A stretch of DNA of 64,000 nt from Ruminococcus sp. (lineage in GTDB: Bacteria; Bacillota; Clostridia; Oscillospirales; Ruminococcaceae). Below are positions 22,014 to 62,862 of the stretch, one piece after another. Every line of letters starts with the position of its first letter. The first letter of the stretch is position 1. The position numbers were made by a program, and so were the translations under genes. The stretch covers positions 1 to 64,000 of the forward strand of contig JAFXXU010000042.1 in NCBI GenBank assembly GCA_017542125.1, given 5' to 3'. Under the pieces are notes generated by a model. It did no database searches. It was given only the letters and a program-made list of their open reading frames with translations, and was not told the origin of the DNA.

Positions 22014-22059
22014 CTGGCGCGCTGCAAGGGACTCGAACCCCTGACCTACTGGTTCGTAG
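22014..22059 (-). repeat. Left attachment site: 3' half of tRNA-Arg, 46-bp direct repeat
   Basis: These 46 bases are identical to 62817-62862. They cover the tRNA from the anticodon loop through the T arm, acceptor 3' strand and encoded CCA. The sequence then diverges completely (TTATAAAATC), so no 5' half is present. A direct repeat of a tRNA 3' end at both edges of a DNA segment is the hallmark of tyrosine-recombinase integration. Confidence 0.92.
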
Positions 22060-22747
22060 TTATAAAATCATTGTTTACGGATATTTGACGAGGTCAATTA
22101 AAGTGCGATTTTGCGTTATTTCGTGAGTTTGATGTTCAATGAAGTTTATTCACATCCAGGCAAGTTTAATGTAGTTTTGGAGGGTGATCCCGGTCTGGTC
22201 CGGGATTTTCCGGATCGGTGCGGGTTCAGTTTCGGATAGTTTCGCTGGCGGTGGAAGGGGTCGTGTTTTGTGAAGCAGGCATTGTTCGACGTGTGGATAG
22301 ACTGACATTTTTCTGCCTGAATACAGGTTCATTGAGACAGTGCCTTGTGTTGTCTGGATGACTTTTGCATGCGCTGTGATATGATTATATTAAACCGAGA
22401 TGTGATGATTGGGGTGTATTTTTCTCAAGTCATATGCAACTCCAGTTCAGTATATTGGAGATTGGTTTGATGGAGTGGGGAGTCATCCGGCGGATACGGT
22501 CGACCGTAATATGCACCTTGCTTTGCGTATTCATATTATGTTCCTGCCCTCCTGTTAACAAAAATGCCGATTTCGGAATTTTCCTCGATCAAGAGATGAA
22601 TGATCCGAAAACGACATTTATTGCTATGATAAAATGGACTTTGGTCTTTTGGGGCTAGAAGAAATTGATGATCACGTTTTTCCGGGACGATCTTGTGACT
22701 TTTGTGTGGTAGGGATGATTTTGATCTGTATGTGGGATGCCCTTTGG
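22060..22747. other. Left end of the island, no convincing gene
   Basis: About 690 bases between the left attachment site and the last gene of the polysaccharide operon. It has a hairpin (TCCCGGTCTGGTCCGGGA near 22187-22204). A weak plus-strand ORF (ATG 22470 to 22658, 62 residues, one hydrophobic helix with CSC) has only a poor ribosome site. No terminator of the polysaccharide operon is obvious here. Confidence 0.5.
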
Positions 22748-23857
22748 CTATTGTTTTATAAGAGTCTTCAGTTCATAAGAAATCTTACCTCGTTTTTGAA
22801 CAAGAACAACCGCGAGTCTGTAAACAGGCAGGAACGGCAAGATCATCCTGTGTTTATAAAACATCGGATACCTCTTTTTAATTACATACATCGGAGGTAT
22901 GAGCCGATCTATAATATATCTTGCTTTGCTTCCGCCGTTTTTCTTAAGGGCATTTGAAATGTTGTTTTTGGTATTTCCGTATGTCCCGGAGAAGATGAAA
23001 TAATCAAGATATTTCTTTTCACTGTCAGTCAGCTTTACACCGTCAAACAGTTTCAGAGCAAGCTTTCTGCTGTCGCTTTCATAATCTGTCATACCAAGCT
23101 TAGACAGTTCTGCTTTAATATAATCCCAATCAAGACCGTTTTTGAATTCATTGAGCAGCACATAGATGTCAACGAGATTTCTGAGGCCTGTTCCGCCTTC
23201 GTTATAGTGTCTGTATTCATGCGCTTTGATATAAAGGTAGTAATCCTCTTTTGTAAAGCTGCGGCCATACTTGCTTGTGCCGTCTGATAAAAGCCGTTTG
23301 TCTATATTTTTATAATAGGTATAAAGCGCATCATTGTCGTCCTCCTCAAACAGCGAAACGTGCATCTGGAAATTGCAGACCGGTTCCTTGAAATAGACAT
23401 CGTGCTTGCTCTTGTCATACGACTTCACATAGAATCCGCAGGAGAGCATTATCCTCTTTATATCCTCCTGACGGCTCCTGTCGATCAAAATATCGTTATC
23501 GGCCATCTGACGCATACCGAAAGCGGGATAATAGTCTTTCAGGATTATGCCTTTCAGCGGCATATACCATATCCCTGCTTTATCAAACTCTGAAAACACA
23601 CGCTCACGCTCGGTATCGAGTATTATCGTCTTGCGGATCGCTCTTGCTTTCTCTTCCTCAAAATCCTTATCATATATCCCCGCTGACTCCAGTGCATACG
23701 CTGCAATAGCTGTAAGTGAATGAGCCTGAGCTACGGCAAAAACGCCTGACAAATCCATCTTTCCGAGCTTTTCTTTTGAGGGGATCTTTTTGTTCAAAAC
23801 ACATCTGATAAGGTAGATCAGATAATATGCGTTTTGCTTGTAATCGTGTTTGTTCAT
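22748..23857 (-). CDS. Nucleotidyltransferase-like protein, polysaccharide cluster
   Basis: A 369-residue cytoplasmic protein of the uncharacterised nucleotidyltransferase family common in exopolysaccharide loci. The core is WYMPLKGIILKDYYP and FGMRQMADNDILID (about residues 97-128), with the GxxMRxxxDxDxL pattern of these enzymes. The substrate is unknown. It is the last gene of the long minus-strand operon, 12 bases downstream of the acyltransferase-like gene, with a TTGGAG ribosome site. Confidence 0.75.
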   Translation of the reverse strand: MNKHDYKQNAYYLIYLIRCVLNKKIPSKEKLGKMDLSGVFAVAQAHSLTAIAAYALESAGIYDKDFEEEKARAIRKTIILDTERERVFSEFDKAGIWYMPLKGIILKDYYPAFGMRQMADNDILIDRSRQEDIKRIMLSCGFYVKSYDKSKHDVYFKEPVCNFQMHVSLFEEDDNDALYTYYKNIDKRLLSDGTSKYGRSFTKEDYYLYIKAHEYRHYNEGGTGLRNLVDIYVLLNEFKNGLDWDYIKAELSKLGMTDYESDSRKLALKLFDGVKLTDSEKKYLDYFIFSGTYGNTKNNISNALKKNGGSKARYIIDRLIPPMYVIKKRYPMFYKHRMILPFLPVYRLAVVLVQKRGKISYELKTLIKQ

Positions 23858-23869
23858 ACGAACTCCAAT

Positions 23870-24916
23870 CTATTTTGCATTGTTAAACGGGAGAAATTGT
23901 TCCTCTGTCTGACTTTTCGATGTTGTCAGAGATAAGAGTTTGCAGATGAGGTGATATATCATCTTCATTATAAAAGCCATTGGGATCGTAAGCGCAAAAC
24001 TCAGTATAAAATATATCAGATTCACCGTTGTCACATTTCTCAGAAGTATCATCGGGATCCTTTGTATTAGATAGATCTCAAGTGAATAGCTGTTCAGAAA
24101 TCTCAGCACTTTATTATCCACCTGAAACTTGATGCTGAACAACAGCAAAAACACGCAAAAGGCGATAATGCAGAGTTCATATACAGGCAGAAGCCTCTTG
24201 AAAAATCCGCCCAAGGCCATTGATCCGCATACTCCTGTCAGAAGCGGATAGAACATCTTGTTCTGAGAAATACAGGCAATTACTCTGTCGTTGTATGAAG
24301 CGCATACCATTCCCAGCAGATAAGCTGCAACTGTGTTGTAGTAGATATCCCCCATAAAGTGCATCATAACGACAAAATATACCGTTGTAAGTGCAGTCAT
24401 CAGAATGAGCGGCGGGATCATTTTCTGCTTAAATGACACATACGAAAATGCCCACATAAACAGTATTGCGACCACATACCATGTAGAGTTGCCCACCGAG
24501 CGGATACCGACAAACGAAAGCAGAACCGTTTTTATACCGTAGCTTCTGCCGGATGCTATCCCTACTGTCATAAACAGTATCACCGTTATGACGAACATCA
24601 GATACAGAGCAACGATCTTTTTTGGGACCTTACTCAGATACTTTTCCGATATGTTATACTGTCTGACAAAGGCAAATCCGCTGAAAAACATAAAAGAGAC
24701 CACAATGAGCTGCCCTGTGGAGCTGTTTATATGCCCGAGGATCCTGTCATATTTTGACTGTGTGATATACTGATAGAAGTGACGGATAAATATGATAACC
24801 ACGAAGAAGCCATTGACAGCCTGCGTCTGCCGTATGTTCAGGCAATCATCAAGGCTCTTGGTCCTCTTTATTCCTATCAGTCCCAAGCCCGCAAGAAAGG
24901 GTAGGATAAGATCCAT
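23870..24916 (-). CDS. Acyltransferase-3-like membrane protein
   Basis: A 348-residue protein with about ten hydrophobic helices. It resembles the acyltransferase-3 family that O-acetylates surface sugars, with an early helix carrying FVVIIFIRHFYQYI where family members have a catalytic His. The family R/H motif is less clear than in the two other copies of this operon, so the call is by overall layout. It starts 2 bases from the VanZ-like stop and has AGGAGA upstream. Confidence 0.65.
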   Translation of the reverse strand: MDLILPFLAGLGLIGIKRTKSLDDCLNIRQTQAVNGFFVVIIFIRHFYQYITQSKYDRILGHINSSTGQLIVVSFMFFSGFAFVRQYNISEKYLSKVPKKIVALYLMFVITVILFMTVGIASGRSYGIKTVLLSFVGIRSVGNSTWYVVAILFMWAFSYVSFKQKMIPPLILMTALTTVYFVVMMHFMGDIYYNTVAAYLLGMVCASYNDRVIACISQNKMFYPLLTGVCGSMALGGFFKRLLPVYELCIIAFCVFLLLFSIKFQVDNKVLRFLNSYSLEIYLIQRIPMILLRNVTTVNLIYFILSFALTIPMAFIMKMIYHLICKLLSLTTSKSQTEEQFLPFNNAK

Positions 24917-24918
24917 AA

Positions 24919-25520
24919 TTAATCTCCTGAATCAAATGCTGTTTTTTCATCCTCTGAGTCTGCGGATGGATCAATTACTTGTCGTATACGGTCATGCCTT
25001 TTCCGAAGCTTCACTGCAGCTGCATACGACAACGTCCCTATCGCCGCACCGAAAGAATTCATAATGACATCGTCTGTTTCAAAATACCCGAGCTTGAATA
25101 TCAGCTGAGACAGTTCGATGCACAGCGAAAAAACAGCTGCAGCAATGACCGTTATCAGTATTCTGCGTTTGAGCATGATCTTTTCGGGAAGTATATACGG
25201 CAGGCTCAGCCCGAACGGAAAGAAAAGAAACGCATTCAGCCATATTGTTTTATAGGCCGGGTGCTTGGCTGTGAACAGTCTTTTGAAAGGTATAAGTCTG
25301 ACATATCTGTTTGTTTTTTCGGTACGGTTGGAGATCGTATAGAAGACTATTGTTACGGCAATTCCGAGAAAGATAATAACATTAAGCGCCCTGCTCAGTT
25401 TCTTAGGCGCATAGACGTTTACCAACGTATAGACCACAAGTACTGAGCAGGTGCAGATAATTTCTTTTTCAGAGACTAGCTGTATATTTCTTTTAAGATG
25501 TCTTTGAAAAAGTCAGACAT
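24919..25520 (-). pseudogene. VanZ-like membrane protein with a one-base frameshift
   Basis: The main frame (25437-24919) encodes a VanZ-type protein (about four helices; FKRLFTAKHPAYKTIWLNAFLFFPFGLSLP and LSQLIFKLGYFETDDVIMNSFGAAIG are typical), but its own 5' end lacks a ribosome site. An ATG at 25520, placed directly after the upstream gene with AGGAGA before it, encodes MSDFFKDILKEIYS and then stops. Inserting one base near 25477 joins it to LVSEKEIICTCSVLVVYTLVNV and restores a complete first helix. The gene is therefore probably broken by a single deletion (or a sequencing error). Confidence 0.65.
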
Positions 25521-25525
25521 GAATA

Positions 25526-26749
25526 TCAGTCTCTCCTGAACAGATCGCGGGTATAAACCTTATCCTCAACATCACCCAGCACATCAGCATCGAACCTGTT
25601 GGCAAGGATAACATCGCTTTCGGCCTTGAATCTTGCCAGGTCGTTGACTACCTTGTTGCCGAAGAATTCGCTGCCGTCCTCGAGGGTGGGCTCGTAGATG
25701 ATTATGGGGATACCGTTTGATCTGATATGCTTCATTACATCTTGAATAGCAGATGCTCTGAAATTATCGCTATTGGACTTCATTGTGAGACGGTAAACGC
25801 CAACGACCTTAGGGTTCTTCGCCATGATCTGATCGGCGATGAATTCCTTTCTTACAACGTTGGACTCAACGACCGCCTTGATCATAGTCTGCGGGACGTC
25901 CTTGTAGTTGGCGAGCAGCTGTTTGGTGTCCTTGGGCAGACAGTATCCGCCGTATCCAAAGCTCGGGTTATTGTAATGTCCGCCGATACGGGGATCCATG
26001 CAGACACCGTCGATGATCATCTGAGTGTCAAGACCCTTGGTCTGAGCATAAGTATCCAGCTCGTTGAAGTAGGAAACTCTTACTGCGAGATAGGTATTTG
26101 CAAACAGCTTGATAGCCTCAGCCTCGGTCAGATGCGCAATCAGAACGGGGATATTCTGCGGGGCGGTACCTGCTCTCTCTTCCTCAGCTCTTGCACCTTC
26201 GAGAAGCAGATTGGCAAACTGCTGTGCAGCCTCTTTCTGTGTATCGTCGCAACCCACGACGATTCTGCTCGGGTGGAGATTGTCGTACAGAGCCTTGGAT
26301 TCACGGAGAAACTCAGGGCTGAAAATGATATTGCTGACGCCATACTTCTCCCTGACGCTGGCAGTGTAGCCAACAGGGATTGTGGACTTGATGACCATCA
26401 TAACATTCGGATTGACCTTGAGCGTCCACTCGATAGCGTCCTCAACGGCGCTGGTATCGAAGAAATGATGCTCGTCATCATAGTTTGTGGGAGTGGCGAT
26501 GATAACAAGCTCCGCGGACTTGTATGCGGCTTCCTTGTCGGTGGTGGTGTGGAGGTTCAAAGTGCGCTTACCCTCACGAGTTTCCTTGAAGAAGCGCTCG
26601 ATCTCATCATCCTGAATGGGGCTGATGAACTGATTGAGCCTCTCGGCTTTTTTTTCCGTAGTTGTGATAGCTGTTACTTCGTGCTTCTGTGCGAGCAGAA
26701 CTGCGAGTGAGAGTCCAACGTAACCTACGCCTGCTACTGTGATTTTCAT
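25526..26749 (-). CDS. ugd: UDP-glucose 6-dehydrogenase paralogue A
   Basis: A 407-residue nucleotide-sugar dehydrogenase making a UDP-uronic acid (most likely UDP-glucuronate) by two NAD(P)-dependent oxidations. It has the Rossmann motif [10 protein letters not shown], the central dimer region, the catalytic Cys in [14 protein letters not shown] and a C-terminal UDP-binding domain. The residue after the second strand, usually Asp, is Thr ([10 protein letters not shown]), which may change cofactor preference. The ATG at 26749 has AAAGGA 9 bases upstream; a TTG three codons earlier is less likely. A second copy lies 18 bases upstream. Confidence 0.9.
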
Positions 26750-26767
26750 GTGTTTCAATCCTTTCTA

Positions 26768-28000
26768 TTAATCTCTTCTGAAAAGGTCACGGGTGTAAAC
26801 CTTATCCTGCACATCATCAAGAACGCTGTCATAGCGATTAGCAATTATTGCATCTGCCGATGCTTTGAATTTCTCAATATCGTTGACAACAAGACTTCCG
26901 AAGAAGGTCTCGCCGTCTTTAAGAGTCGGCTCATAAATGATTACCGTAGCACCTTTAGCTTTAATGCGTTTCATAACGCCTTGAATCGAGGACTGACGGA
27001 AATTGTCACTATTTGACTTCATCGTCAGACGGTAAACGCCCACGATCAGCGGCCTTTCTTTTTCGGAATTCCACATAGAATTCGCAGTGTAGTAGCCCGC
27101 CTTTTCAAGCACGCGATCAGCTATGAAATCCTTTCGTGTACGGTTGCTTTCAACTATCGCGGTCATCATATTTTGAGGAACATCAGCATAGTTTGCAAGC
27201 AACTGCTTAGTGTCCTTTGGTAAACAATAGCCACCGTAACCAAATGACGGATTATTATAGTGGCTGCCGATACGAGGATCAAGACAAACACCGTTGATTA
27301 TTGCCTGAGTATCAAGTTCCTTCATTTCAGCATAAGTATCAAGCTCATTAAAATAGCTTACACGCAGCGCAAGATATGTATTTGCAAACAACTTAACGGC
27401 CTCAGCCTCAGTGAATCCCATAAAGAGTGTTTCGATGTTCTCTTTAATTGCACCTTGCTGCAAAAGCTCGGCGAATGTGTGAGCTGCCTTTACAAGTTTC
27501 TCATCATTCAAATCTGTGCCAACAATGATACGGCTTGGATAAAGATTGTCATACAGAGCCTTGCTCTCGCGGAGAAACTCGGGGCTGAAAATGATGTTTT
27601 TTGTATTATACTTTTCTCTTACAGACTTCGTATATCCAACGGGAATCGTCGATTTGATAACCATTACAGCGTTGGGATTGACCTTGAGGACAAGCTCGAT
27701 AACAGCCTCAACTGCCGAGCAATCAAAAAAGTTTTTCTTCGGATCATAGTTTGTAGGCGCAGCGATGACTACGAAATCAGCGTCCTTGTATGCGCTCTCA
27801 CCGTCGAGGGTCGCTGTCAGATCAAGCTCCTTCTCGGCAAGATACTTCTCGATGTATTCGTCCTGAATAGGCGATTTTTTGCTGTTGATGAGCTCAACCT
27901 TTTCAGGGATGATGTCAACGGCTGTGACCTTGTTGTGCTGTGCTAAAAGTGTTGCTATTGAAAGGCCAACGTATCCTGTTCCTGCTACTGCAATTTTCAT
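26768..28000 (-). CDS. ugd: UDP-glucose 6-dehydrogenase paralogue B
   Basis: A 410-residue paralogue of the neighbouring gene with the same motifs ([51 protein letters not shown]). It keeps the usual acidic residue after strand 2 ([10 protein letters not shown]). Its ATG overlaps the stop of the UDP-glucuronate epimerase gene by 4 bases, so product and next enzyme of the pathway are made together. The codon choice looks more A/T-rich than in paralogue A, so the two may have separate origins rather than being a recent duplication. Confidence 0.92.
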
Positions 28001-29064
28001 TTGTTACTCTCTCCCATATAGAAATCTTTATACCACTCTGCGAAGTGTCTCAAACCTGTCCGCAGATCAATAGTCGGCTTGAATCCGAAGTCCCGCTCCA
28101 GAGCGGAAGCATCAGCATAAGTCACAGGGACATCTCCCGGCTGCATAGGAACAAGTTCCTTATGTGCCTCAAAATCGTAATCCGATGGCAGCACACCTGC
28201 ACGGACGAGCTCCTCGCTGAGGATCTGCACGAAATCAAGAAGGTTCTCCGGCTGTCCTCCGCCGATATTATAGACCGCATAAGGCGGCAGTGGAAGACCA
28301 TCCTCACCGTTTTTCTTCTCCGGCGGTTTCTTCATAACACGGACAACGCCCTCGACGATATCATCAACATAAGTAAAGTCGCGCCTGCAATTACCATAGT
28401 TGAAAATCTTTATGGTCTCACCCTTGACGAGCTTGTTTGTGAAACCGAAGTATGCCATATCCGGACGTCCGGCAGGACCGTAAACTGTAAAGAAACGCAG
28501 TCCCGTCGAGGGAATGTTATACAGCTTAGAATAAGCGTGAGCAAGAAGCTCATTGCTCTTTTTAGTAGCTGCATAAAGGCTCACAGGGTTGTCCACCATA
28601 TCGTCAACGCTGAATGGCACCTTCTTATTGCCGCCGTAAACACTGGAACTGCTTGCATATACGAGATGTTCCACAGGATAATGACGGCTGGCTTCGAGAA
28701 TGTTGTAGAAACCGATGATATTGGAATCAATATAAGCCTGTGGGTTTTCAATTGAATATCTGACACCTGCCTGGGCAGCAAGATTTACTACAATATCAGG
28801 TTTGTACTCTTCAAAAATCTGATTAATCGTTCCTTTATCAGCCAAATCGGCTTTAAAGAATTTATATGTGCAAGAACTGTTCTTTTGAGCTTCTTCTATT
28901 TCAGCGAGCCGATATTTTTTTAATGCTACGTCGTAGTAGTCATTCATATTGTCAAGGCCGATAACAACTGCGCCGTCATAGTCTTTGAATATGCGCTTTA
29001 CGACGTTGGCTCCAATGAAACCGGAGGAGCCGGTGACGAGAATTGTTATATTTTTCAAACTCAT
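27997..29064 (-). CDS. UDP-glucuronate 4-epimerase-like (UDP-galacturonate forming)
   Basis: A 355-residue extended short-chain dehydrogenase. It has the NAD motif [11 protein letters not shown], the signature [13 protein letters not shown] characteristic of UDP-glucuronate epimerases, the catalytic SSSVYGG and YAATKKSNE (YxxxK). It should convert UDP-GlcA from the adjacent dehydrogenases to UDP-GalA. I chose the ATG at 29064 because AAAGGAAG is too close to the ATG at 29070. The 29070 ATG overlaps the upstream stop. Confidence 0.88.
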
Positions 29065-29066
29065 AT

Positions 29067-30119
29067 TCATACTTCCTTTGTTTTATTAGCAGCTATATGA
29101 TGCTGTCGAATCAACGTATCTTCTACTTTTTTCCAAACAATTCCGATCAAGCAGGATGCAGCCGCAATAAGAATCAAAGCCAAGATTCTTTTTGAAAGTG
29201 ACAACATATGCATCTGATCGAATTTATAATACAACGGAATGTAGATAATCATCTGTGAATACATTATATGATAGGATGATCTTCCTATCAGGGAAATAAT
29301 GTTTCCAATCATCCCTTTACAATCCTTACTCCAGCACAGTTTCAGTATCCAATATAAAAACGGCAGTATCCAAAATGCGGTAATCATTGATGTTCTTCCC
29401 CACACTGGGTAGGAAAAGAAACGGTAACTGTAACCAAATGACGGAAGGCACAAATAAACCGCTCCTACCAACATTGACAGTATTGACATAATGAAATCAA
29501 GCTTACCGACACAATCGTTTTGTTTCTTTCGATGGTTATCAATGATCAAAAAGATAATCATTCCTCCACCGATGTGGAACATATATCTAAAAACAAGTAT
29601 CCTATAAACACCTACACCAAGATTAACGGAATGACAGATAAACTCATATCCCGCAGTCGCAAGACCGATACACAGCAACCCCAAGAACATATACTTTTTA
29701 ACAATCACCAAAAGAATCGGCATAATAAAAATCAAGCCGACCAAAAGATAGAAATAATAACTGCCCTGTCCGTAATCCGCAAGCAAAAGCTTCTTCATCA
29801 ACGGTCCCAGCTTGAGATGTTTGATGATTATTTCGAACAGGACCCATAGTATTAGCGTTAACATCATCGGAAAGAAATACCGAAGAAACTGTTTTCTTAT
29901 TCTCGGAAACGCATACATTTCCTTTAATGATTTCCGACTGCATGAGGCCGCAAAAACATATCCGCTTAATGCCATAAAAATAGGTACTGCAGGATTAATA
30001 AAAAGCAAAAAGAAAGGATTGTCTTTATCAAAGACGTTGGAATGATTAACTATAACAAATATGATCATTACCGCTTTAATACAGTCAATTATCCATACTC
30101 TCTTTCGTTCGGCACTCAT
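29067..30119 (-). CDS. Acyltransferase-3 family sugar O-acyltransferase
   Basis: A 350-residue, roughly ten-helix membrane protein. The opening RVWIIDCIKAVMIIFVIVNHSNVF carries the conserved His of the family, and PAVPIFMALSGYVFA is the second signature. It likely adds an acetyl group to a sugar of the repeat unit at the membrane. The ATG at 30119 follows GGAG by 8 bases. The stop overlaps the epimerase gene. Confidence 0.85.
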   Translation of the reverse strand: MSAERKRVWIIDCIKAVMIIFVIVNHSNVFDKDNPFFLLFINPAVPIFMALSGYVFAASCSRKSLKEMYAFPRIRKQFLRYFFPMMLTLILWVLFEIIIKHLKLGPLMKKLLLADYGQGSYYFYLLVGLIFIMPILLVIVKKYMFLGLLCIGLATAGYEFICHSVNLGVGVYRILVFRYMFHIGGGMIIFLIIDNHRKKQNDCVGKLDFIMSILSMLVGAVYLCLPSFGYSYRFFSYPVWGRTSMITAFWILPFLYWILKLCWSKDCKGMIGNIISLIGRSSYHIMYSQMIIYIPLYYKFDQMHMLSLSKRILALILIAAASCLIGIVWKKVEDTLIRQHHIAANKTKEV

Positions 30120-30163
30120 TATAATCACTCCGAATAATTATTGATATGAATTATGTACAATTT

Positions 30164-31234: not shown

Positions 31235-31236
31235 GA

Positions 31237-55019: not shown

Positions 55020-55045
55020 ACAGATCTCCTCCTTAAAACATCTGT
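55020..55045 (-). promoter_or_regulatory. Hairpin enclosing the integrase 2 ribosome site
   Basis: On the minus strand ACAGAT and ATCTGT pair across a loop that contains AAGGAGGAG, ending next to the ATG. It could modulate translation of the recombinase. Confidence 0.4.
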
Positions 55046-55079
55046 ACAGAATTTCGGACTGTTAAATCGAATGCCGCAT

Positions 55080-55107
55080 ATCATAACACTATTGTTTTAT
55101 CCCGCAA
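55080..55107 (-). promoter_or_regulatory. Probable promoter of integrase 2
   Basis: On the minus strand TTGCGG (55107-55102), 16 bases, TATGAT (55085-55080), 60 bases upstream of the start codon. Confidence 0.55.
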
Positions 55108-55518
55108 ATCGGGATATGGAGTTGGTCCTCTCCGGCGGCTAAAGGTATGTTTTACGTCCACACCAAAGACGCGGGCTTTTATGGTCGGGCCCTGGCAAAC
55201 CGTATAGAAGCCTTTTCAAGTCGTGCTTGTGACCGCTGATGCCAAAAATCTATGATAAAACAGCATCAGCCAAGTTTTATAATGGCGCAACCCTTTTACG
55301 GGATCACTGAGCTTTCGATTTAACAGACGACCGCCAAGCACTTATGGCGTGCCGCTTACCGTCTTAAAACGGTACCCTGAAACGCTGTGCAGATACGTTC
55401 CCAATGCCGCCCCCGAGCACTTACGAAGCGCGGAATTCTCGTCACAAGCCGGTTACACCTCAACTTCGTTGAGTTATAACCGTCTTGTTTCCCCTATACA
55501 GTGAGAAGATCTATGTCA

Positions 55519-55553
55519 AAGAGGGGTGCTGTGGCTGACCCTCTGTTTTTTTA
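55519..55553 (+). terminator. Terminator of the candidate structured RNA
   Basis: AGAGGG (55520-55525) pairs with CCCTCT (55539-55544) and GTTTTTTT follows. There is no plus-strand gene upstream that it could serve other than the candidate RNA. Confidence 0.75.
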
Positions 55554-55566
55554 TACATTTATACGC

Positions 55567-55658
55567 AAAAAAGCCCGGAGCTCCCTTGCTTTGGAACTCC
55601 GGACTAAAAAGTAAATTTGTACTATCTATATCATATCACAAAATGTTATATTTGTCAA
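55567..55658 (-). ncRNA. Short promoter-terminator unit 2 (about 60-nt transcript)
   Basis: On the minus strand TTGACA (55658-55653), 17 bases, TATGAT (55635-55630), then within 25 bases the stem AGTCCGGAG/CTCCGGGCT (one mismatch, 55605-55597 with 55580-55572) and six T. Its spacer is the 19-bp dyad copy 4 (55633-55651). The terminator stem contains GAGTTCCAA, also present in unit 1. No gene lies between, so a small RNA is the simplest reading. Confidence 0.6.
55633..55651. repeat. 19-bp dyad copy 4
   Basis: ATATCACAAAATGTTATAT, lying exactly in the promoter spacer of short unit 2. Confidence 0.7.
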
Positions 55659-55834
55659 GAGGGTTTTGAAAAAAATTTGCTTTGAACGGTTCCTATTTTC
55701 CAAAACCGCAAAAATCCTGATTTCGGGAAACAGACTGAATGTGCCGCCCCTCTGAACTCAACCGCCTGAACACCATATAAACGTCTGCCCCGTGTGCTTA
55801 CAGCGCTTGCCACGGTACTCATAAAGGAACACTG

Positions 55835-56752
55835 TTATTGAGTTGGGGAAGAAGCACCCCGGGCTTTGTTATCCTTACCGAACTCTTCCGCAAAGCCACA
55901 AGCATTCCGCAAGAACATCTCTTTATTGTTATCGAAGCGAGTCTTTTTCCTCCTCATAGCAATACGGAAACTGTGCTTGTTATATTCTTTGTTATAGGAA
56001 GCTTTGACGCGGATCAATTTGAATTCTTTAAAAATATTCTCCCACTCACTGCAGTTCTTTCCCTTTACATACTGGTTATACAACTGTCCAGCTTGTTTAT
56101 CACTGATGCCTTTATCGGATACTTTTGCCTCCGGATTTTCAGTGTTGCGTGATCTGCTCCAGTAAAAGAACCGATTCTTTTCAGTCACAGGCACAAATGT
56201 TCCCTTGTCATCTATTTCCGTTTCCGGTGAGTCCGGCTTGTCTTCCTTACACAAATAGTAAGAGAGCTTTACTGCGCTTTCATAATCTATTTTAGCCTGC
56301 TTTAAGTTGATGTTTCCGTGCTGCCATGCATCCTCTATGATCTCTCTGTTCTGTCTGGAACTCGGTATATTCAGGACAACATGAAAATGGATATTATCAT
56401 CATTTGCGCCGGTCTCAACAACCTTTATGTATTTGAGATCTCCCCATCCCATGCTCTTTGCTCTGGTCTTTAATCTGTTGATAAAATTCTTCCATATACT
56501 ATGGAGCGTCGCATTATCAAGTCCTTCCTGGTCTTTGATGGTCAGTGTCAGAAAGCTTGTGCTGGTGCTGACGAAATTTGCCAGAATAATCCTTAGCAGC
56601 TTCCAGGCCTTTTGGTGATAATTGTATCTCTTCATTTTTTGAGTCGTCGGGTTCTTCTTCTCCCTTTTGGACAGGGAAAACTTCTTCGGCCTTGTACTGA
56701 ATACTTCAGCTAACAAAATATCCTTACATTCGTATGAACGTGTTCTGATCAT
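55835..56752 (-). CDS. HUH-type replication initiator / relaxase-like protein
   Basis: A 305-residue protein resembling rolling-circle replication initiators of the phage G2P/REP ORF2 type. The HUH metal-binding motif is IHFHVVLNI (about residues 122-130). The downstream SAVKLSYYLCKE (about 168-179) carries the candidate nucleophile Tyr pair with a Lys. A central charged stretch and a basic C-terminus follow. The start at 56752 has a strong AGGAGG 6 bases upstream; an earlier TTG is in frame but less likely. It is downstream of integrase 3 on the same strand, so excision and replication functions are probably co-transcribed, as in self-replicating integrative elements. Confidence 0.82.
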   Translation of the reverse strand: MIRTRSYECKDILLAEVFSTRPKKFSLSKREKKNPTTQKMKRYNYHQKAWKLLRIILANFVSTSTSFLTLTIKDQEGLDNATLHSIWKNFINRLKTRAKSMGWGDLKYIKVVETGANDDNIHFHVVLNIPSSRQNREIIEDAWQHGNINLKQAKIDYESAVKLSYYLCKEDKPDSPETEIDDKGTFVPVTEKNRFFYWSRSRNTENPEAKVSDKGISDKQAGQLYNQYVKGKNCSEWENIFKEFKLIRVKASYNKEYNKHSFRIAMRRKKTRFDNNKEMFLRNACGFAEEFGKDNKARGASSPTQ

Positions 56753-56904
56753 ATAAAACCTCCTGTAATTAATCAATAATTTTCAGATCTTCGGGTGACT
56801 GCTCTCCTGAGATCTGCTCCTTCAAAAACCGTCCTAATGTTATGACCCATATCAAGTCCGGCAAGGCCCGGACTCCCGGGCCATTTTCGGACTGTATCAA
56901 TCGA

Positions 56905-58329
56905 TCATTCGGGCGCATCTGTCCCGCTGCCGTTTTGGTTTTCGTCCGCTCCAAGCGCTTTGTTCAGAGCGTTGCCGAACTGCTCCGCTGCATCACGGCT
57001 CTGTTTGGAGAGAGTATGGGTATATATCGCCTGTGTCGTCAGAACGGAACTGTGTCCCAGCATCCTGCTGACCACAAGCGGATCTGTTCCTGCGTCGTTA
57101 GCCAGAGTCGCAAATGTATGGCGGAATTTATGCGGGTTTATGTGCGCAAGCCCATACTTCTTTTCAAACTTCCCGAAATGGTCATTTATAGAATCGGGAT
57201 GCATCGGGAGACCCACGTTCCCGGTTTTCTCCTGAAAGAATATATAACCTGTTTCATTCCACGAATCTCCGTAGGCTGCTTTGCGTTCGATATACCACTT
57301 GCGGTATTCTTTCAGCAGCTCCCTCTCGTAATCCGTGATAGGAAATTCTCTTATGCTTTTATCGCTTTTGGGAGAACCTGCATATAATCCGTCAGAGGGC
57401 TTGTACTGTAAATTGTTGTCCACATGGATCACTGAGTTGTCAAAGTCGATAGCAGACCACTTCAAGCCCGCTATCTCTCCGCGCCTCATTCCCGTCTTGT
57501 AAAACAGGGCGAAAATAGTCTGCCACTTGATGCTTTCCTGTCTGCTTGCGTTGATTATGGCAGTCAGCTCCTCCCAGGTGAATGCTTCGCGCTCTTTCTG
57601 CGGAACTTTGGGAGGATCAGCAGTTTTGACCGGATTCCTCTCGATGAGTTCCTCCTTGTATGCCAGCTCAAATATGACAGACAGGAAGATATGGAACTCC
57701 TTGACCGTCTTATATGCCAGCGGCCTGTTATCCATAGTGATATTGAACAGGCTGCTGCAGTCTGTATCCAGCACCTCTGCGATCAGCCTGGCCATGTCTT
57801 CTCTGATCTTGCGGCCGTTACAGGCGGCCGAGACCGTAGCCGTGGATATTCCTGCTTTCCCTGCTGCCGCGGCTATGGTCATTCCCCGGTCTGCTATCAC
57901 CGCACGGATATCTGTCTTCGGAGCGGCAGAGCCGGGCTTCGCCCTGCATCCCGAGGATAGCAGGTCATCGTAGTATTTGTTGATCATCTTAGTATCTATA
58001 TTGTTAAGCCTCAAGTCTCCGAACCGTTCGTTAACTCTCGGCAGGAAATATCTTCTATATGTAGTCTCTGTCTTCGGCTTCATCTTGCCCCTTGAGACCA
58101 GATGCTTTATGGCATATTCGGCATAATCTGAAAATATGGGATCCTTGATATTTGCTTTCTTCTTGAGTTCCTCTTCACGCCTTTTGGCTTCTTTCCTGTT
58201 CTGCTTCTCTGTCTTGCTTGGGTCATATTTGTAGGTCTCAGTCAGTTCGGGAAGGCCCTTGCCTCTGTAAACGCCTATAACATAGGCTCTGATCTTTCCG
58301 TTTTTGTATTTCCTTGTTCTTATACTCAA
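56905..58329 (-). CDS. Tyrosine integrase 3 with an inserted helix-turn-helix domain
   Basis: A 474-residue Tn916-like integrase. After an N-terminal arm-binding part and a basic linker (TEKQNRKEAKRREEELKKK), the core-binding domain (about 65-235) is interrupted near residues 140-195 by an XRE-like helix-turn-helix (DRGMTIAAAAGKAGISTATVSAACNGRKIREDMARLIAEVLD). The catalytic domain has R282 in TGMRRGEIAGL, HKFRHTFATLA (HxxR) and LGHSSVLTTQAIYTHTL (His and Tyr). The start is TTG, placed 10 bases after AAAGGAG. It lies downstream of two excisionase-like genes and upstream of the rep gene, a typical int-xis-rep layout. Confidence 0.92.
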   Translation of the reverse strand: MSIRTRKYKNGKIRAYVIGVYRGKGLPELTETYKYDPSKTEKQNRKEAKRREEELKKKANIKDPIFSDYAEYAIKHLVSRGKMKPKTETTYRRYFLPRVNERFGDLRLNNIDTKMINKYYDDLLSSGCRAKPGSAAPKTDIRAVIADRGMTIAAAAGKAGISTATVSAACNGRKIREDMARLIAEVLDTDCSSLFNITMDNRPLAYKTVKEFHIFLSVIFELAYKEELIERNPVKTADPPKVPQKEREAFTWEELTAIINASRQESIKWQTIFALFYKTGMRRGEIAGLKWSAIDFDNSVIHVDNNLQYKPSDGLYAGSPKSDKSIREFPITDYERELLKEYRKWYIERKAAYGDSWNETGYIFFQEKTGNVGLPMHPDSINDHFGKFEKKYGLAHINPHKFRHTFATLANDAGTDPLVVSRMLGHSSVLTTQAIYTHTLSKQSRDAAEQFGNALNKALGADENQNGSGTDAPE

Positions 58330-58448: not shown

Positions 58449-58643
58449 TCAACCTTCCATTTTCAGAAATCTAAGTACGTCATCGAGGTTGAGCAGTGTC
58501 TTCCTTCCTGCCTGGATGCTGGGGATGGCATTGCTCCTGCACCACGCTCTCAGCGTTGACTCATCGACATAAACACCAATACTGCTAAGTGCTCTGACTG
58601 TTTCAGGGATAGTCATTATCCTTATAGCTCTGTTCTCTGTCAT
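58449..58643 (-). CDS. Excisionase-like DNA-binding protein B
   Basis: A 64-residue winged-helix protein (IMTIPETVRALSSIGVYVDESTLRAWCRSNAIPSIQAGRKTLLNLDDVLRFLK) of the MerR/excisionase type, which would bind DNA near the attachment site and direct integrase 3 to excision. It has a strong AAAGGAGGG site. It is a paralogue of the gene 115 bases upstream, 119 bases before the integrase start. A hairpin with CTGCCCC/GGGGCAG lies between it and the integrase gene (about 58364-58384). Confidence 0.8.
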   Translation of the reverse strand: MTENRAIRIMTIPETVRALSSIGVYVDESTLRAWCRSNAIPSIQAGRKTLLNLDDVLRFLKMEG

Positions 58644-58946: not shown

Positions 58947-59083
58947 ATAGGCATTTCCTCCTTTCGTCGATCTATTTATAACCTGTTTAAAAGTGACGGC
59001 GGCATTTTAAACCGGCGGATAAAAATACCGGATAAAAAGTCACGCGCTCCCGAACAGGGTAAATACCTTTATGGAAATAAAAA

Positions 59084-59165
59084 AGATCGCTGTAAGTGAA
59101 TCACAGCGATCTGTATAAGAAATATTCATTGCATATATTATACCACAACTTAAACGGCTTGTCAA
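59084..59165 (-). ncRNA. Promoter-terminator unit in repeat 1
   Basis: On the minus strand TTGACA (59165-59160), 17 bases, TATAAT (59142-59137), then about 24 bases to the perfect 10-bp stem 59112-59084 followed by TTTTTTATTT. The predicted transcript is about 50-55 nt, directed at the excisionase genes. Confidence 0.65.
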
Positions 59166-59187
59166 ATCGCGACTACACAACTTCGCA

Positions 59188-59217
59188 TTTGCCTTTTTAC
59201 GCCCTTTTACGGTATAA
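59188..59217 (+). promoter_or_regulatory. Plus-strand promoter in repeat 1 (also in repeat 3)
   Basis: TTGCCT, 18 bases, TATAAT, reading away from the short minus-strand unit. Repeat 3 has the same boxes near 59870-59900; repeat 2 has TATAGT instead. A transcript from here would cover the covarying stem of the unit. Confidence 0.5.
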
Positions 59218-59413
59218 TATCTGTTCTGTTCTTATAAAATCTGCTCGCTGGACATCACTTCTGCCTTTATAAAATGTTCCGGGCTGACCTTATAACTGCC
59301 TTTATAGCCATATAAGGTCAGGTGCATTTATAAGGGGTATATAAGTTCCTCGGATAAAAGTGCCCGTATAAAGGAACTTTATATCTGCGGTATATACCTT
59401 ATAGGAATAAAAA

Positions 59414-59495
59414 AGATCGCTGTAAGTAATTCACAGCGATCTGTATAAGAAATATTCATTACATATATTATACCACAAGTTAATCAGCTTGTCAA
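59414..59495 (-). ncRNA. Promoter-terminator unit in repeat 2
   Basis: Same layout as in repeat 1: TTGACA (59495-59490), 17 bases, TATAAT (59472-59467), hairpin 59442-59414 and T tract. Promoter boxes and stem are unchanged while the spacer differs (GTTAATCAGC against CTTAAACGGC region), which suggests selection on these parts. Confidence 0.65.
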
Positions 59496-59764
59496 ATCGC
59501 GACTACACAACTTTGTTTTTTTCTGCACTTTCTGTTTTACGCCGATTTTACGCCTTTTTACGGTATAGTATCTGTTCTGTTCCTTATATCATCTGCTCGC
59601 TGGACATCACTTCTGCCTTTATAAAATGTACCGGCCTAAACTTATAACTACTTTTACGCCGTATAAGTTCAGGTACCTTTATAAGGTATATATAAGTCCC
59701 ACGGATAAAAGTGCCAGTTTAAAAGTGCTCTATATCTGCGGTATATACCTTATAGGAATAAAAA

Positions 59765-59846
59765 AGATCGCTGTAAGTGAATCACAGCGATCTGTATAAG
59801 AAATATTCATTGCATATATTATACCACAAGTTGACTGGCTTGTCAA
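59765..59846 (-). ncRNA. Promoter-terminator unit in repeat 3
   Basis: TTGACA (59846-59841), 17 bases, TATAAT (59823-59818), hairpin 59793-59765 and T tract. The fourth copy further right has CTGACA and TGTGAT boxes and a mismatched stem, so it is probably inactive. Confidence 0.65.
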
Positions 59847-60120
59847 ATCGCGACTACACAACTTCGCATTTGCCTTTTTACGCCCTTTTTTCGGTATAAT
59901 ATCTGCTCTATTCTTATATCATCTGCTCGCTGGACATCACATCTGCCTTTATAAAATGCTTTAGGACTGAACTTATAACTGCCTTTATAGGCGTATAAGG
60001 TCAGGTACCTTTATAAAGTATATAAGTCCCTCGGATAAAAGTACCCTTATAAAGGAACTTTATATCTGCGGTATATATACCTTTATAAAATAAAAAAGAT
60101 CGCTGTAAACGGATCACAGC

Positions 60121-60586
60121 AATCAACAGAAAATATATAGAAAAGACCTATCACATATATCACACCGCGAAAAGGCCGGCCTGTCAGATCAGACCACAAG
60201 GCATTCTGCGGACGTAAACCGTCCTCGTTCCTATATTCAGTTTCTTTTGATTACATGGCATCACTTCAATCTGTTTTATTTTATACGTTGCCCTTGATCC
60301 GAACCTGCGTGTTCTTTACTGCACGGTATCAGATCAAATACCTTATGATACTATTATACCACACCATGATTGGCTTGTCAAATTCGAAAGAACGGTTTTT
60401 GCAAAACCCCTCTTTACCAACACAGAAAGTGCCTTGTGCCTTATATATTTATATAGTATAACTCCTATACGCTTATACGAGATATCACAAATTGTGATAT
60501 TCGCATTGATGCGTGAAATGCGTCCTTATTAACAGTCAGCGATCTGCTTGTTACAGTATAATAAGGATAAACCGATCAACAAACAC
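60121..60586. other. Non-coding flank of the repeat array
   Basis: It holds the decayed fourth promoter unit and the dyad copy 5. Otherwise A/T-rich sequence without a supported ORF; the 68-codon frame at 60255-60461 has no ribosome site. Confidence 0.5.
60482..60500. repeat. 19-bp dyad copy 5, perfect palindrome
   Basis: ATATCACAAATTGTGATAT, a perfect 9-1-9 palindrome, marking the right side of the region that shares this dyad. Confidence 0.75.
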
Positions 60587-60657: not shown

Positions 60658-62139
60658 TCACTTCGTCCCTGTCAGCGCTGTACCGTTCACATAGAGAGTG
60701 TAGCCGTTGGAAATAACATTCGATGCATCGCCGTTGAATTCGGTGATGTAGCTGTCGCCCGTGAGCGTCCAGGTGCTGGAGCTGTCGAGAGTTACGGAGA
60801 CTGTTCCGACATCCGTGGAAACTGTGTCGCCCTTGGCATTGGTGATGCTGCCGCTCACATAGCCTTTGAGTGTGGAGCCGTCCGAGAGATTCAGCGTCAG
60901 CTTGGAGTTGTCGCCCACAAGTACCGCGCCCTCAAGAGTCTGCTTGGAAACGTTCAGCGTGGCTGTGTTGGAGCCGCCGTTCCAACCGTCATCACAAACC
61001 GAGATCAGAACATTATCGCTGTCCTCGTTGGTGATCTTCACGCCGGTCAGGGTGATCACCGCATTGGTGTTTGTAACGTGGAAAACGTGACCGTTCTTGC
61101 TGGTCAGCGAGCCGCCTGTCATATTGAAGGACGAGGTGCCGCTGTCCGCATCGCCCGACATGGACTGATAGATCATAATGGTATCCATAAAGGTGGCGTT
61201 GCCGTTGCACTTGGTGTTGTTTGCGGTCATATCGCAGTTGTTGAGGGTTATGGAGTTGAGCCCTTCAATGCACACGCCCTCAGAGAGATTTGAAACGAGC
61301 GTGGCGTTCTCAACGGTTATATCCGCCGTGGAGTAGATGGCAGGCGAACCAAGACCGTTGGATGTATATGTGCCGCCGTCAACGGTGACAGTTCCGCCGC
61401 CTCTGTCGGTGCGTATGGGAGCCGAGGACTGTCCGCTTGTAGTGACAGTGAGGTTATTTGCCTTGGTGATACCGCCGCCGGTGGTCATTATGCCGCCCGA
61501 GCCGCTGCCGGTGGTGGTGATAGTCGAGTCCTTGATGATGACTGTGGTGCCGTCACCCGATGCGCCGTTCTTTCCGCCGTTGCCGCCGTAGCTGAACACG
61601 CCGTTGGCGCCCGATGCGTCCGAGGTGATAGTCGCATTCGTGATAGTTGTCGTCGAACCGTCCTTGACCAGCACCGCCGCATTCTGACCGTAGAAATTGC
61701 AGTTGTCGCCGCCGTCGGAATCGCCGGACTTGGTGACCGTGGCATTTGTGACTGTCACATCATCCGAGGTGCTTATCAGCAGAGCGCTCTGATCTGATTC
61801 CGACGATTCGTAGGTCTTGCCGTCCTGTGTTTCAGACGAGGTTATTTCCGTTGCTCCGCCGTAAACAACTTCACTGCGATTCCCACCGGGGCCTCCGCCC
61901 TGTCCGTCAGGAGGAGCGCCGTCAGGCTTGTCGCCGCCGCCTTTGCCGTCAGGCGGATCGCCGGGCTTGTCACTATTGCTCTCTGTATCGTCCTGCTGTT
62001 CCTCACTGGAAGCTGTGCTCTCGCTTACAGAAGAAACCGTATCTGCCGAACCCTTGGACGAGCTGTCCGAGGTGCTGCCGCAGGCTGTCATTGCAGCCGC
62101 AAGGATTATTGCCAGTGTCATAGATAATGCTTTTTTCAT
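60658..62139 (-). CDS. Surface lipoprotein with a right-handed beta-helix-like repeat domain
   Basis: A 493-residue exported lipoprotein: signal peptide with lipobox AAMTAC (about residues 1-20), a Ser/Asp/Gly/Pro-rich linker (about 20-90, with GDPPDGKGGGDKPDG-type repeats) and a long region of short repeated strands rich in T, S, N, V and I (SALLISTSDDVTVTNATVTKSG, GVNSITLNNCDMTANN and similar). These suggest a parallel beta-helix as in carbohydrate-binding or adhesive surface proteins. No catalytic residues are recognisable. The ATG at 62139 follows GGAGG by 8 bases. Its base composition is much more G/C-rich than the polysaccharide operon, so it may have come to the island separately. Confidence 0.8.
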   Translation of the reverse strand: MKKALSMTLAIILAAAMTACGSTSDSSSKGSADTVSSVSESTASSEEQQDDTESNSDKPGDPPDGKGGGDKPDGAPPDGQGGGPGGNRSEVVYGGATEITSSETQDGKTYESSESDQSALLISTSDDVTVTNATVTKSGDSDGGDNCNFYGQNAAVLVKDGSTTTITNATITSDASGANGVFSYGGNGGKNGASGDGTTVIIKDSTITTTGSGSGGIMTTGGGITKANNLTVTTSGQSSAPIRTDRGGGTVTVDGGTYTSNGLGSPAIYSTADITVENATLVSNLSEGVCIEGLNSITLNNCDMTANNTKCNGNATFMDTIMIYQSMSGDADSGTSSFNMTGGSLTSKNGHVFHVTNTNAVITLTGVKITNEDSDNVLISVCDDGWNGGSNTATLNVSKQTLEGAVLVGDNSKLTLNLSDGSTLKGYVSGSITNAKGDTVSTDVGTVSVTLDSSSTWTLTGDSYITEFNGDASNVISNGYTLYVNGTALTGTK

Positions 62140-62271
62140 AGTGATGACCTCCTTTGAACTTCTCTTTGAGCTTATCATACCATTCCTGCCTTAATCTTAC
62201 TTAAAGGCAATATGAAAAGCGGGTGAAAGATCAGAGCGCGGAGGAGAAGGTGGTTGCAGGATCTATCTTTT

Positions 62272-62287: not shown

Positions 62288-62391
62288 TGAATAATCATTC
62301 AGAAAGCATTGCCTATTCTGACTGCCGGTAACTATTATTCCACAGCAGCCCAATAAATATTGCTCACATCATTTCAGAACAGAAAAAGCTC

Positions 62392-62643
62392 TCACATCCG
62401 AACTGTGAAAGCCAAATCATTAGCTATTCTGTTGTGATGATACAGAGTCCAATGCGCCTTACCCTCAAAGCGAGAGTATGCAACAATATTATCCCCGATC
62501 TTTCCCCCACCTGAGAGCAAAAACGGCGCCACATATTCACCCTCCTGACCGCAGAGCACACTGCCTGCACTCTCCGAGATATGCTCCCGGAGCTCTCCTG
62601 ATACAGGAGCAAAAACAGCCCGCACCGTCCTGTTGCATGACAC
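62392..62643 (-). CDS. Possible small or truncated protein at the right end of the island
   Basis: An 83-codon frame with protein-like composition (ESAGSVLCGQEGEYVAPFLLSGGGKIGDNIVAYSRFEGKAHWTLYHHN) but no ribosome site at its ATG. A TTGACA box lies just upstream (62669-62664), inside a sequence shared with the tRNA promoter region (TTTGTCAAGCTAAAA at 62657 and 62935). It could be the remnant of a gene cut during insertion. No family is recognised. Confidence 0.3.
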   Translation of the reverse strand: MSCNRTVRAVFAPVSGELREHISESAGSVLCGQEGEYVAPFLLSGGGKIGDNIVAYSRFEGKAHWTLYHHNRIANDLAFTVRM

Positions 62644-62761
62644 ATCAGAAGCCCGCTTTTTGTCAAGCTAAAAACCTTTGCGGGATTTTTTGCGGGACTG
62701 CATTCAAAAAAAGGAGGACTGTCATGCTCAAAACAAGCCCCGTTCCCCGAGCAGTACAAAA

Positions 62762-62792
62762 CAAAAAACCCCCGCGTTTTCGGACGCGAGGG
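62762..62792 (-). terminator. Terminator downstream of the intact tRNA-Arg
   Basis: On the minus strand CCCTCGCGT/ACGCGGGGG followed by TTTTTTGTTTTG, 25 bases after the tRNA 3' end. It belongs to the island side and replaces the original terminator now at 21952-21987. Confidence 0.8.
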
Positions 62793-62816
62793 CATTCGGT
62801 GGTGCACCGCGTGCAC

Positions 62817-62862
62817 CTGGCGCGCTGCAAGGGACTCGAACCCCTGACCTACTGGTTCGTAG
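62817..62862 (-). repeat. Right attachment site within tRNA-Arg
   Basis: The 46 bases identical to 22014-22059. The crossover lies somewhere in this stretch, from the anticodon loop to the base after CCA. The tRNA stays functional because the island brings its own 3' half. Confidence 0.92.

What the first reader, a model, noticed from the sequence alone, without database searches (positions are those of the whole stretch)
22014..62862. A genomic island of about 40.8 kb inserted in tRNA-Arg(ACG)
46 identical bases covering the tRNA 3' half lie at both ends in the same orientation. The intact tRNA with promoter is on the right; the displaced fragment on the left is followed by a classic tRNA terminator. 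The island carries the whole surface polysaccharide locus, so the cell surface type may be exchanged by integration and excision.
Basis: partly seen in the sequence, partly recalled or inferred. Interest (0 to 1): 0.8.

Follow-up and report, generated by a model that had tools for sequence, protein, structure and literature searches.

The report
Mosaic polysaccharide island in tRNA-Arg
A 40.8-kilobase block carrying a sugar-coat gene cluster sits, as a patchwork of mobile pieces, at a transfer-RNA gene that related gut bacteria also use as a landing site; a real genomic island of a well-known general kind.

Summary
Two identical 46-bp copies (22014-22059, 62817-62862) bracket 40.8 kb; the right one is the 3' part, up to the anticodon loop, of an intact tRNA-Arg(ACG). 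Island G+C is 0.435, flanks 0.544. The predicted empty-site junction aligns over 277 of 278 bp (91.4%) with contig C116 of a same-genus genome, G014, where the two flanks abut.

C116 is not a virgin site: an integrase lies 270 bp from the core, and the window's left flank (about 21892-22013) looks like the decayed end of such an element, so insertions seem to have accreted in tandem. The island is a mosaic: two full tyrosine integrases, neither at an end, and a 6.1-kb stretch that G014 lacks. A homologous polysaccharide locus with similar ends and a different centre lies elsewhere in G014. It is not "the whole" surface locus: two more sugar-transferase loci exist, one apparently in a cluster.

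Best reading: a composite, cis-mobilizable-like (CIME-like) tRNA island, excisable only if some tRNA-Arg integrase acts on it. A new member of a known kind. Side result: integrases of this family often carry an embedded helix-turn-helix and have a tandem repeat pair, nearly always 11 bp apart, in 41 of 43 integrase-to-core intervals.

The parts
22014..22059 (+). Left 46-bp direct repeat: displaced 3' part of tRNA-Arg(ACG) (far attachment site)
   Evidence: Identical to 62817-62862
62817..62862 (+). Right 46-bp direct repeat inside the intact tRNA gene (tRNA-proximal attachment site)
62818..62894 (-). Intact tRNA-Arg(ACG)
   Evidence: ARAGORN; Rfam RF00005
21892..22013 (.). Probable relic right end of another element: degenerate arm-type pair (AGTGTCCT 21916, ATTGCCCT 21927) and terminator hairpin 21960-21988
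   Evidence: 93% over 119 bp, core excluded, to the stretch between an integrase and the tRNA in G014 C116, where both words read AGTGCCC
62677..62697 (+). Tandem pair TTTGCGGGA x2, period 12: candidate arm-type integrase sites of the island's right end
   Evidence: One of 2 perfect >=9-bp pairs at period 11/12 in 64 kb; pairs lie in 41 of 43 integrase-to-core intervals of relatives, but nearly always with period 11 and nearer the core
62745..62816 (.). Right inner end with terminator-like hairpin 62768-62791
   Evidence: Core excluded: 78% over 74 columns to G014 C46, 92% over 49 bp to G002 C99, both next to a core copy
22748..45457 (-). Polysaccharide biosynthesis locus, 21 ORFs: nucleotidyltransferase, acyltransferases, two UDP-sugar dehydrogenases, epimerases, pyruvyl transferase, TupA-like, glycosyltransferases, initiating sugar transferase, PglD-like; no Pfam hit for the 522-aa and 415-aa ORFs, which may be flippase and polymerase (inferred)
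   Evidence: ORFs; Pfam
45445..45552 (-). Conserved leader upstream of the polysaccharide operon
   Evidence: 92% over 108 bp to the same place in G014 C195
45553..51664 (.). 6.1-kb stretch in place of 0.34 kb in G014: HA-domain helicase 45540-47873 (-), Int1 tyrosine integrase 48040-49149 (+), HTH 49362-49598, DUF6036 nucleotidyltransferase 49760-50494, HTH 50466-51038
51665..55678 (-). Block conserved with G014 next to its polysaccharide locus: 91-aa ORF, 409-aa ORF (512 aa in G014), 352-aa ORF with weak tyrosine-recombinase hits
   Evidence: 84-87% DNA; hits below cut-off
55835..56776 (-). Replication initiator (PF23343 REP_ORF2-G2P, phrog_3584); rolling-circle type by family name
56905..58329 (-). 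Int2: tyrosine integrase with an embedded Cro/C1-type HTH; R, H-x-x-R, H and Y motif residues present (motif recalled)
58449..58643 (-). HTH_17 protein, excisionase-like, upstream of Int2
   Evidence: 25.4 bits, below Pfam cut-off 27; tblastn hits in 18 of the 80 integrase loci
58970..60383 (-). About four copies of a ~330-bp repeat, three of them fuller, upstream of the xis-int2-rep genes
   Evidence: sequence
60658..62178 (-). Lipoprotein-like cargo gene with a weak beta-helix hit
   Evidence: Pfam hit below cut-off; DNA homologues in G007, G063, G075

Best explanation
A composite genomic island sits site-specifically in the 3' part of tRNA-Arg(ACG), next to the probable relic of an earlier element at the same gene. 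Shown: the 46-bp repeat, the junction without the island in a relative, other elements at this tRNA in relatives, the composition difference, the mosaic structure. Inferred: a tyrosine integrase of the HTH-containing, tRNA-targeting family integrated a circle by exchange within the 46-bp core, between the tRNA and an older element. The element then lost the integrase that normally sits at its tRNA-proximal end, or had it displaced, and its content was reshuffled, with the Int1 and rep-Int2 segments as later or moved pieces. It now resembles a cis-mobilizable element (CIME): two usable-looking att cores, no integrase at an end, no transfer genes recognised. It would excise through the two cores if Int2 or another tRNA-Arg integrase acts on it, taking the polysaccharide locus with it.
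For: 46-bp repeat and tRNA. Predicted empty-site sequence aligns to G014 C116 in one piece, 277 of 278 bp, 91.4%, 4 gap openings. Island G+C 0.435, host 0.544; the 20 4-kb pieces starting 20001-58001 have tetranucleotide distances of 0.281-0.678, against a maximum of 0.216 in 18 host pieces. Accretion at this tRNA: core copies on three G014 contigs (C116, C138, C46), two with an adjacent integrase; a 36-kb stretch between two copies in G009 with an integrase inside. Int2's three nearest genus homologues (41-44%) lie beside a tRNA-Arg core. Of 80 Int2 relatives (best 80 of 201 found), 19 have tRNA-Arg(ACG) 3' of the integrase within 1.5 kb, 20 tRNA-Met(CAT), 3 tRNA-Arg(CCG), in all 42 with the tRNA 3' end facing the integrase. 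Mosaic. Definition of CIME and accretion: passages of PMC5704250 and PMC3146451.
Against: No circular form, read data or second strain was available. Int2 is reversed relative to those 42 relatives and 4.5 kb from the tRNA, so it may serve another site. The candidate arm pair has period 12 and begins 140 bp from the core; the pairs in relatives have nearly always period 11 and mostly begin 65-122 bp away, and no matching pair was found at the left end. The left-flank gene order is not shared with G014 in the contigs seen, so the empty site is shown only near the junction. The composition border is not sharp: the left-flank piece 18001-22000 (0.298) and the 2-kb piece 62001-64000 (0.260) also exceed the host maximum. 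The left-end sequence (22060-22791) gave no genus hit at E<=1e-10 and does not align with the left end in G014 C138.
Confidence: 0.62

Rival explanations
1. A complete integrative and mobilizable element: Int2 with its xis-like protein excises the whole 40.8 kb at the 46-bp cores, and the Rep acts as replication initiator and non-canonical relaxase.
For: Int2 is full-length with catalytic motif residues (motif recalled) and belongs to a family in which 19 of 80 loci lie at tRNA-Arg(ACG). Rep matches PF23343 and phrog_3584. Rolling-circle initiators as putative relaxases are described for Firmicutes IMEs (PMC5704250, passages).
Against: In 42 of 42 relatives with a tRNA seen 3' of the integrase, the integrase's 3' end faces the tRNA; here it points away and the gene is 4.5 kb off. 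The one tandem pair found on Int2's 3' side is 911 bp away and unlike the right end's. Int2 sits on a long branch (1.89) in the family tree.
Confidence: 0.2
2. Two or more tandem elements, for example a polysaccharide element (22060-about 55680) and a rep-Int2 element (about 55680-62816), whose internal core copy was lost.
For: Homology to G014 C195 stops at 55678, just before the rep-Int2 segment; core copies followed by element-like ends are seen in G014 and G002.
Against: No third core copy with up to 3 mismatches in 21 bases in the window, none near-identical in the genome held; no direct repeat longer than 11 bp between 55400-57000 and 58330-62900.
Confidence: 0.13
3. The polysaccharide genes are ancestral at this place and the left 46-bp copy is an unrelated relic.
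For: Element ends are common here, so an isolated core relic is conceivable.
Against: In G014 C116 the two flanks abut; composition differs from the host; the homologous locus lies elsewhere in G014. DNA matches to 22060-42059 occur in 5 of 15 other genus genomes, none on a contig where the tRNA-Arg core was seen, though several of those contigs are short.
Confidence: 0.04

Closest known systems
CIMEs and tandem accretion at tRNA/tmRNA genes (ICESt1-related elements; Dehalococcoides ssrA islands)
   Same: att cores kept at both ends, no integrase at the end, neighbours in tandem sharing the core (PMC5704250 and PMC3146451, passages)
   Different: Host group, tRNA-Arg target, polysaccharide cargo; an internal integrase is still present; accretion here is inferred from relics
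SPI-7 of Salmonella Typhi (Vi capsule island in pheU)
   Same: Capsule locus on a mosaic island bounded by direct repeats, between a full and a partial tRNA gene (PMC4100779, passages)
   Different: 133.5 kb, other phylum, excision reported there and untested here
Integrative and mobilizable elements of Firmicutes with rolling-circle-type relaxases
   Same: Tyrosine integrase family at tRNA 3' ends, replication-initiator gene (PMC5704250, passages)
   Different: Int2 position and orientation are not those of its relatives; relaxase activity and oriT not tested
Polysaccharide loci with shared ends and a variable centre (pneumococcal cps type; recalled)
   Same: Ends shared with G014 C195 at 76-92% DNA, centre without DNA match
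   Different: The two loci sit at different chromosomal places

Membership tests
tRNA-integrated genomic island | Direct repeat of a tRNA 3' part at both ends, intact tRNA at one | tested here: met
tRNA-integrated genomic island | Relatives without the insert have the flanks joined | tested here: met
   Junction-level only: 277 of 278 bp in G014 C116, with another element's integrase 270 bp from the core
tRNA-integrated genomic island | Foreign composition | tested here: met
   the nearest flank pieces also deviate somewhat
tRNA-integrated genomic island | Integrase gene next to an end | tested here: not met
   Nearest integrase is 4.5 kb from the tRNA and reversed; in the printed part of a tblastn with the integrase family no hit under E=0.2 in 58330-62816 and none in 22060-22760
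CIME | att cores retained at both ends | tested here: met
CIME | Integration and transfer genes lost | tested here: inconclusive
   Int2, Int1 and Rep are inside; no Pfam relaxase or secretion-system hit among the ORFs scanned, some short ORFs not scanned
CIME | Mobilised by a neighbouring element | not testable with these tools
   Needs cells or reads
IME (autonomous integration) | Cognate integrase recombines the two ends | not testable with these tools
   Needs an assay
IME (autonomous integration) | Integrase in the family's usual place | tested here: not met

The most novel reading that the evidence does not exclude
tRNA-Arg(ACG) in these rumen/gut Clostridia is a shared dock where the polysaccharide locus has become an integrase-orphan island. 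Any resident HTH-bearing integrase could move it through the common 46-bp core. Element identity would be set by 11-bp-spaced arm pairs that evolve separately from the tRNA target, since the same arm word (AGTGCCC) occurs beside tRNA-Arg and tRNA-Met. Surface type would then change in two ways: whole-island exchange at the tRNA, and centre swapping between shared ends.
Probability: 0.15. Interest if true: 0.6.

Novelty: new member of a known kind. Interest (0 to 1): 0.35.

Why it matters
Surface polysaccharides of gut and rumen bacteria bear on phage sensitivity and host contact (recalled). A case where such a locus is bracketed by attachment cores at a busy tRNA dock makes surface change by site-specific recombination testable with simple PCR. 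The regular repeat pairs in 41 of 43 integrase-to-core intervals give a handle for finding ends of such elements in draft genomes.

Tried and rejected
(1) Reading G014 C116 as a clean empty site: dropped when an Int2-type integrase was found 270 bp from the core. (2) Reading the 20-bp inverted repeats 53918-53937 / 55633-55652 as an invertible promoter switch: similar words recur at about 53.69-53.82 kb and in G014 between promoter-like hexamers, so they look like operators (by eye); not pursued. (3) Finding Int2's own ends by direct repeats: longest match 11 bp to the right side, 14 bp to the left side. (4) Finding integrase remnants at the island ends by tblastn: in the printed part of the output no hit under E=0.2 there; the best hit (E=1e-4) was an HTH gene at about 50.9-51.0 kb. 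(5) Finding arms at the left end: two words with 2 mismatches, one unlike 7-bp pair of period 10. (6) Finding the predicted attP junction in viral contigs: 0 exact matches. (7) Left-flank synteny: the 401-aa neighbour gene occurs in 2 of 16 genus genomes, the window's own included; the other copy is on a contig without the core. (8) A phage origin of Int2: 1878 phage records match, all under 60% identity, 2 covering 80% of the query; not informative. (9) Defence-gene search of eight proteins: only weak or partial matches.
Full report
OBSERVATION. The 46-bp direct repeat is exact (22014-22059, 62817-62862). A 21-base piece with up to 3 mismatches has 2 matches in the window and 0.00 expected. 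The right copy belongs to the only tRNA in the window, tRNA-Arg(ACG), minus strand. The repeat covers the 3' 45 nt of the tRNA plus one base, ending in the anticodon loop. A promoter lies to the right of the tRNA and a terminator hairpin follows the displaced fragment on the left (by eye).

INSERTION. The window belongs to a 133.6-kb contig (C44) of a 2.9-Mb draft genome. I joined 21892-22059 to 62863-62972 in a script. The result aligns in one piece to G014 contig C116, 1799-2075: 277 of 278 bases, 91.4%, 4 gap openings. The right-flank lipoprotein-like gene follows there too (57.8% over 187 aa). So the two flanks abut in a relative. On the other side, window 4473-5037 and 7556-8185 match G002 C99 at 89% and 85% in the same order, 4.5 kb from a core copy (2 mismatches) there; in the window they lie about 14-18 kb from the left core. 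This suggests that the left flank is a usual neighbourhood of this tRNA. The G002 contig seems to lack about 2.5 kb between those two matches.

NOT A VIRGIN SITE. In G014 C116 an Int2-type integrase (489-aa ORF ending at 1651) lies 270 bp from the core at 1921. The stretch left of the core matches the window's left flank at 93% over 119 bp, core excluded, including two AGTGCCC words 11 bp apart; in the window these read AGTGTCC and ATTGCCC. I read the window's left flank as a decayed element end. G014 has further core copies on C138 (integrase adjacent) and C46, and G002 one on C99. All three are followed by one kind of left-end sequence (C46 against C138: 85% over 140 bp), which does not align with the window's left end. 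The window's right inner end matches the stretch beside the core in G014 C46 (78% over 74 columns) and G002 C99 (92% over 49 bp), core excluded. G009 has 36 kb between a 63-bp and a full copy of the same tRNA, with an integrase inside. The tRNA is therefore a dock, and tandem accretion is likely.

WHAT IS INSIDE. A 21-ORF polysaccharide locus (22748-45457) shows nucleotide-sugar enzymes, glycosyltransferases, acyltransferases and an initiating sugar transferase. To its right come an HA-domain helicase, integrase Int1, HTH and DUF6036 genes, a block shared with G014, a replication initiator, integrase Int2, an excisionase-like HTH protein, an array of about 330-bp repeats and a lipoprotein-like gene. 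Among the ORFs scanned no relaxase or secretion-system family was reported; some short ORFs were not scanned. G+C is 0.435 in the island and 0.544 in the host sequence used (window 1-19000 plus contig 63501-83000). Tetranucleotide distances of the 20 4-kb pieces starting at 20001-58001 are 0.281-0.678; the largest of 18 host pieces is 0.216. Against a sharp border, 18001-22000 gives 0.298 and the 2-kb piece 62001-64000 gives 0.260.

MOSAIC. G014 C195 (81 kb, no core copy; no tRNA in its slices) holds a homologous locus. Shared are the nucleotidyltransferase (76%), a UDP-sugar dehydrogenase (77%), the leader 45445-45552 (92%) and the block 51665-55678 (84-87%); between them the centre has no DNA match. 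In G014 the leader and the block are 0.34 kb apart; in the window 6.1 kb, holding the helicase-Int1 segment. Which state is older is not shown. The G014 locus lies about 4 kb from a phosphoglucomutase-like gene (name from my reading). In the window's genome that gene, on C40, has other neighbours. So the locus, or its shared ends, occurs at two different chromosomal places in two species. The genus search covered 22060-42059 only and found matches in 6 of 16 genomes, the window's own included.

NOT THE ONLY SUGAR LOCUS. PF02397 matches three places in the genome: the window, C49 and C87. On C87 four neighbouring ORFs match the window's glycosyltransferase (36-42%) and a flippase-like ORF is near (names partly my reading, no domain search run on them).

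INTEGRASES. Int2 has an embedded HTH (residues 141-190) between its SAM-like and catalytic parts. Of 76 family members scanned, 76 match Phage_integrase and 53 HTH_3. Of 80 genome loci (the best 80 of 201 relatives found), 42 have a tRNA 3' of the integrase within 1.5 kb: 19 Arg(ACG), 20 Met(CAT), 3 Arg(CCG). None has one 5' of it within that distance, 64 of 80 loci holding that much upstream sequence. L195 has the 46-bp core without a tRNA. Of the 58 loci with at least 1.5 kb downstream, 36 have the tRNA and 22 do not. Int2 itself has a long branch, and its nearest neighbours mix Arg and Met targets. It is reversed relative to these 42 and 4.5 kb from the tRNA, so it is a candidate, not an established island integrase.

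ARM PAIRS. Between integrase and core, 19 of 20 Arg(ACG) loci have a tandem word of 7 bp or more with period 11-12; same-length random pieces of those loci have one in 102 of 1000 draws. For the tRNA-Met and Arg(CCG) loci it is 22 of 23, periods 10-12 allowed, with no null of its own and two long intervals (945 and 1117 bp). In 40 of these 41 the pair has period 11. The island's right end has TTTGCGGGA twice, period 12, starting 140 bp from the core, one of only two such perfect pairs of 9 bp or more in the window. Its period and distance differ from the usual pattern, and no clear partner was found at the left end. The pair supports an element end but does not name the integrase.

MECHANISM. 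Integration by exchange in the 46-bp core is inferred from anatomy. Loss or displacement of the end integrase and reshuffling are inferred from comparison with relatives. Excision in present cells is untested. The nearest described concept is the cis-mobilizable element with accretion (passages of PMC5704250 and PMC3146451). A capsule locus on a tRNA island that excises is known from SPI-7 (passages of PMC4100779). Five literature searches showed no title or abstract opening in their listings about this tRNA-Arg dock in these bacteria; I saw passages of the three papers named and nothing more of them, and listings only of the rest.

LIMITS. One genome per species is held, so no strain comparison was possible. 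Genomes are drafts. The DNA searches of relatives scored few candidates per genome (3-4), so misses are possible.

CHECK. 

Noticed in passing
56905-58329 and L194-L273: Tyrosine integrases of this family often carry an embedded Cro/C1-type HTH domain (HTH_3 in 53 of 76 scanned), perhaps an integrase that regulates itself.
   Followed up: partly
L194-L272, between integrase and core: 41 of 43 integrase-to-core intervals hold a tandem word pair, 40 of them 11 bp apart, mostly starting about 65-122 bp from the core. The same word (AGTGCCC) occurs beside tRNA-Arg and tRNA-Met, so arm word and target look separable.
   Followed up: partly
58970-60400: About 330-bp repeats upstream of the xis-int2-rep genes; three copies have a TTGACA/TATAAT promoter closely followed by a terminator-like hairpin with T run, minus strand (by eye). 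Possibly amplified leader or small RNA units.
   Followed up: partly
45445-45552: Leader of the polysaccharide operon with hairpin-like inverted repeats (by eye), 92% conserved in G014 although the genes that follow differ; a candidate regulatory RNA. No Rfam hit at gathering score.
   Followed up: no
53690-53820, 53918-53937, 55633-55652: Recurrent operator-like word (like ATATAACATTTTGTGATAT) between promoter-like hexamers, also in G014.
   Followed up: partly
51973-53202: The 409-aa ORF corresponds to a 512-aa ORF in G014 (89% over 409 aa); the window copy looks shortened at its start.
   Followed up: no
57-102: A dispersed ~46-bp sequence recurs near contig ends in relatives (G014 C116, C46, C50; G002 C99) and also inside other fetched stretches; it may break assemblies.
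   Followed up: partly
42968-44198: Epimerase and sugar transferase genes match the 420-kb plasmid record NC_014824 of Ruminococcus albus 7 at 81.5% DNA.
   Followed up: no
L077-L079 (G009 C4 95857-132359): A different element, with ParA-like and apparently conjugation-type genes (my reading, no domain search), occupies the same tRNA-Arg in G009.
   Followed up: partly
L068 1-4288 (G010 C24): G010 shows window-left-flank pieces (20606-20749, 21813-21927) beside its intact tRNA-Arg with other genes between them and a serine-recombinase-like ORF (my reading) at the contig end.
   Followed up: partly
G002 C99 (L067) 119-1507: Two stretches 2.5 kb apart in the window (5037 and 7556) are adjacent in G002, as if part of the transhydrogenase genes were missing there.
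   Followed up: no
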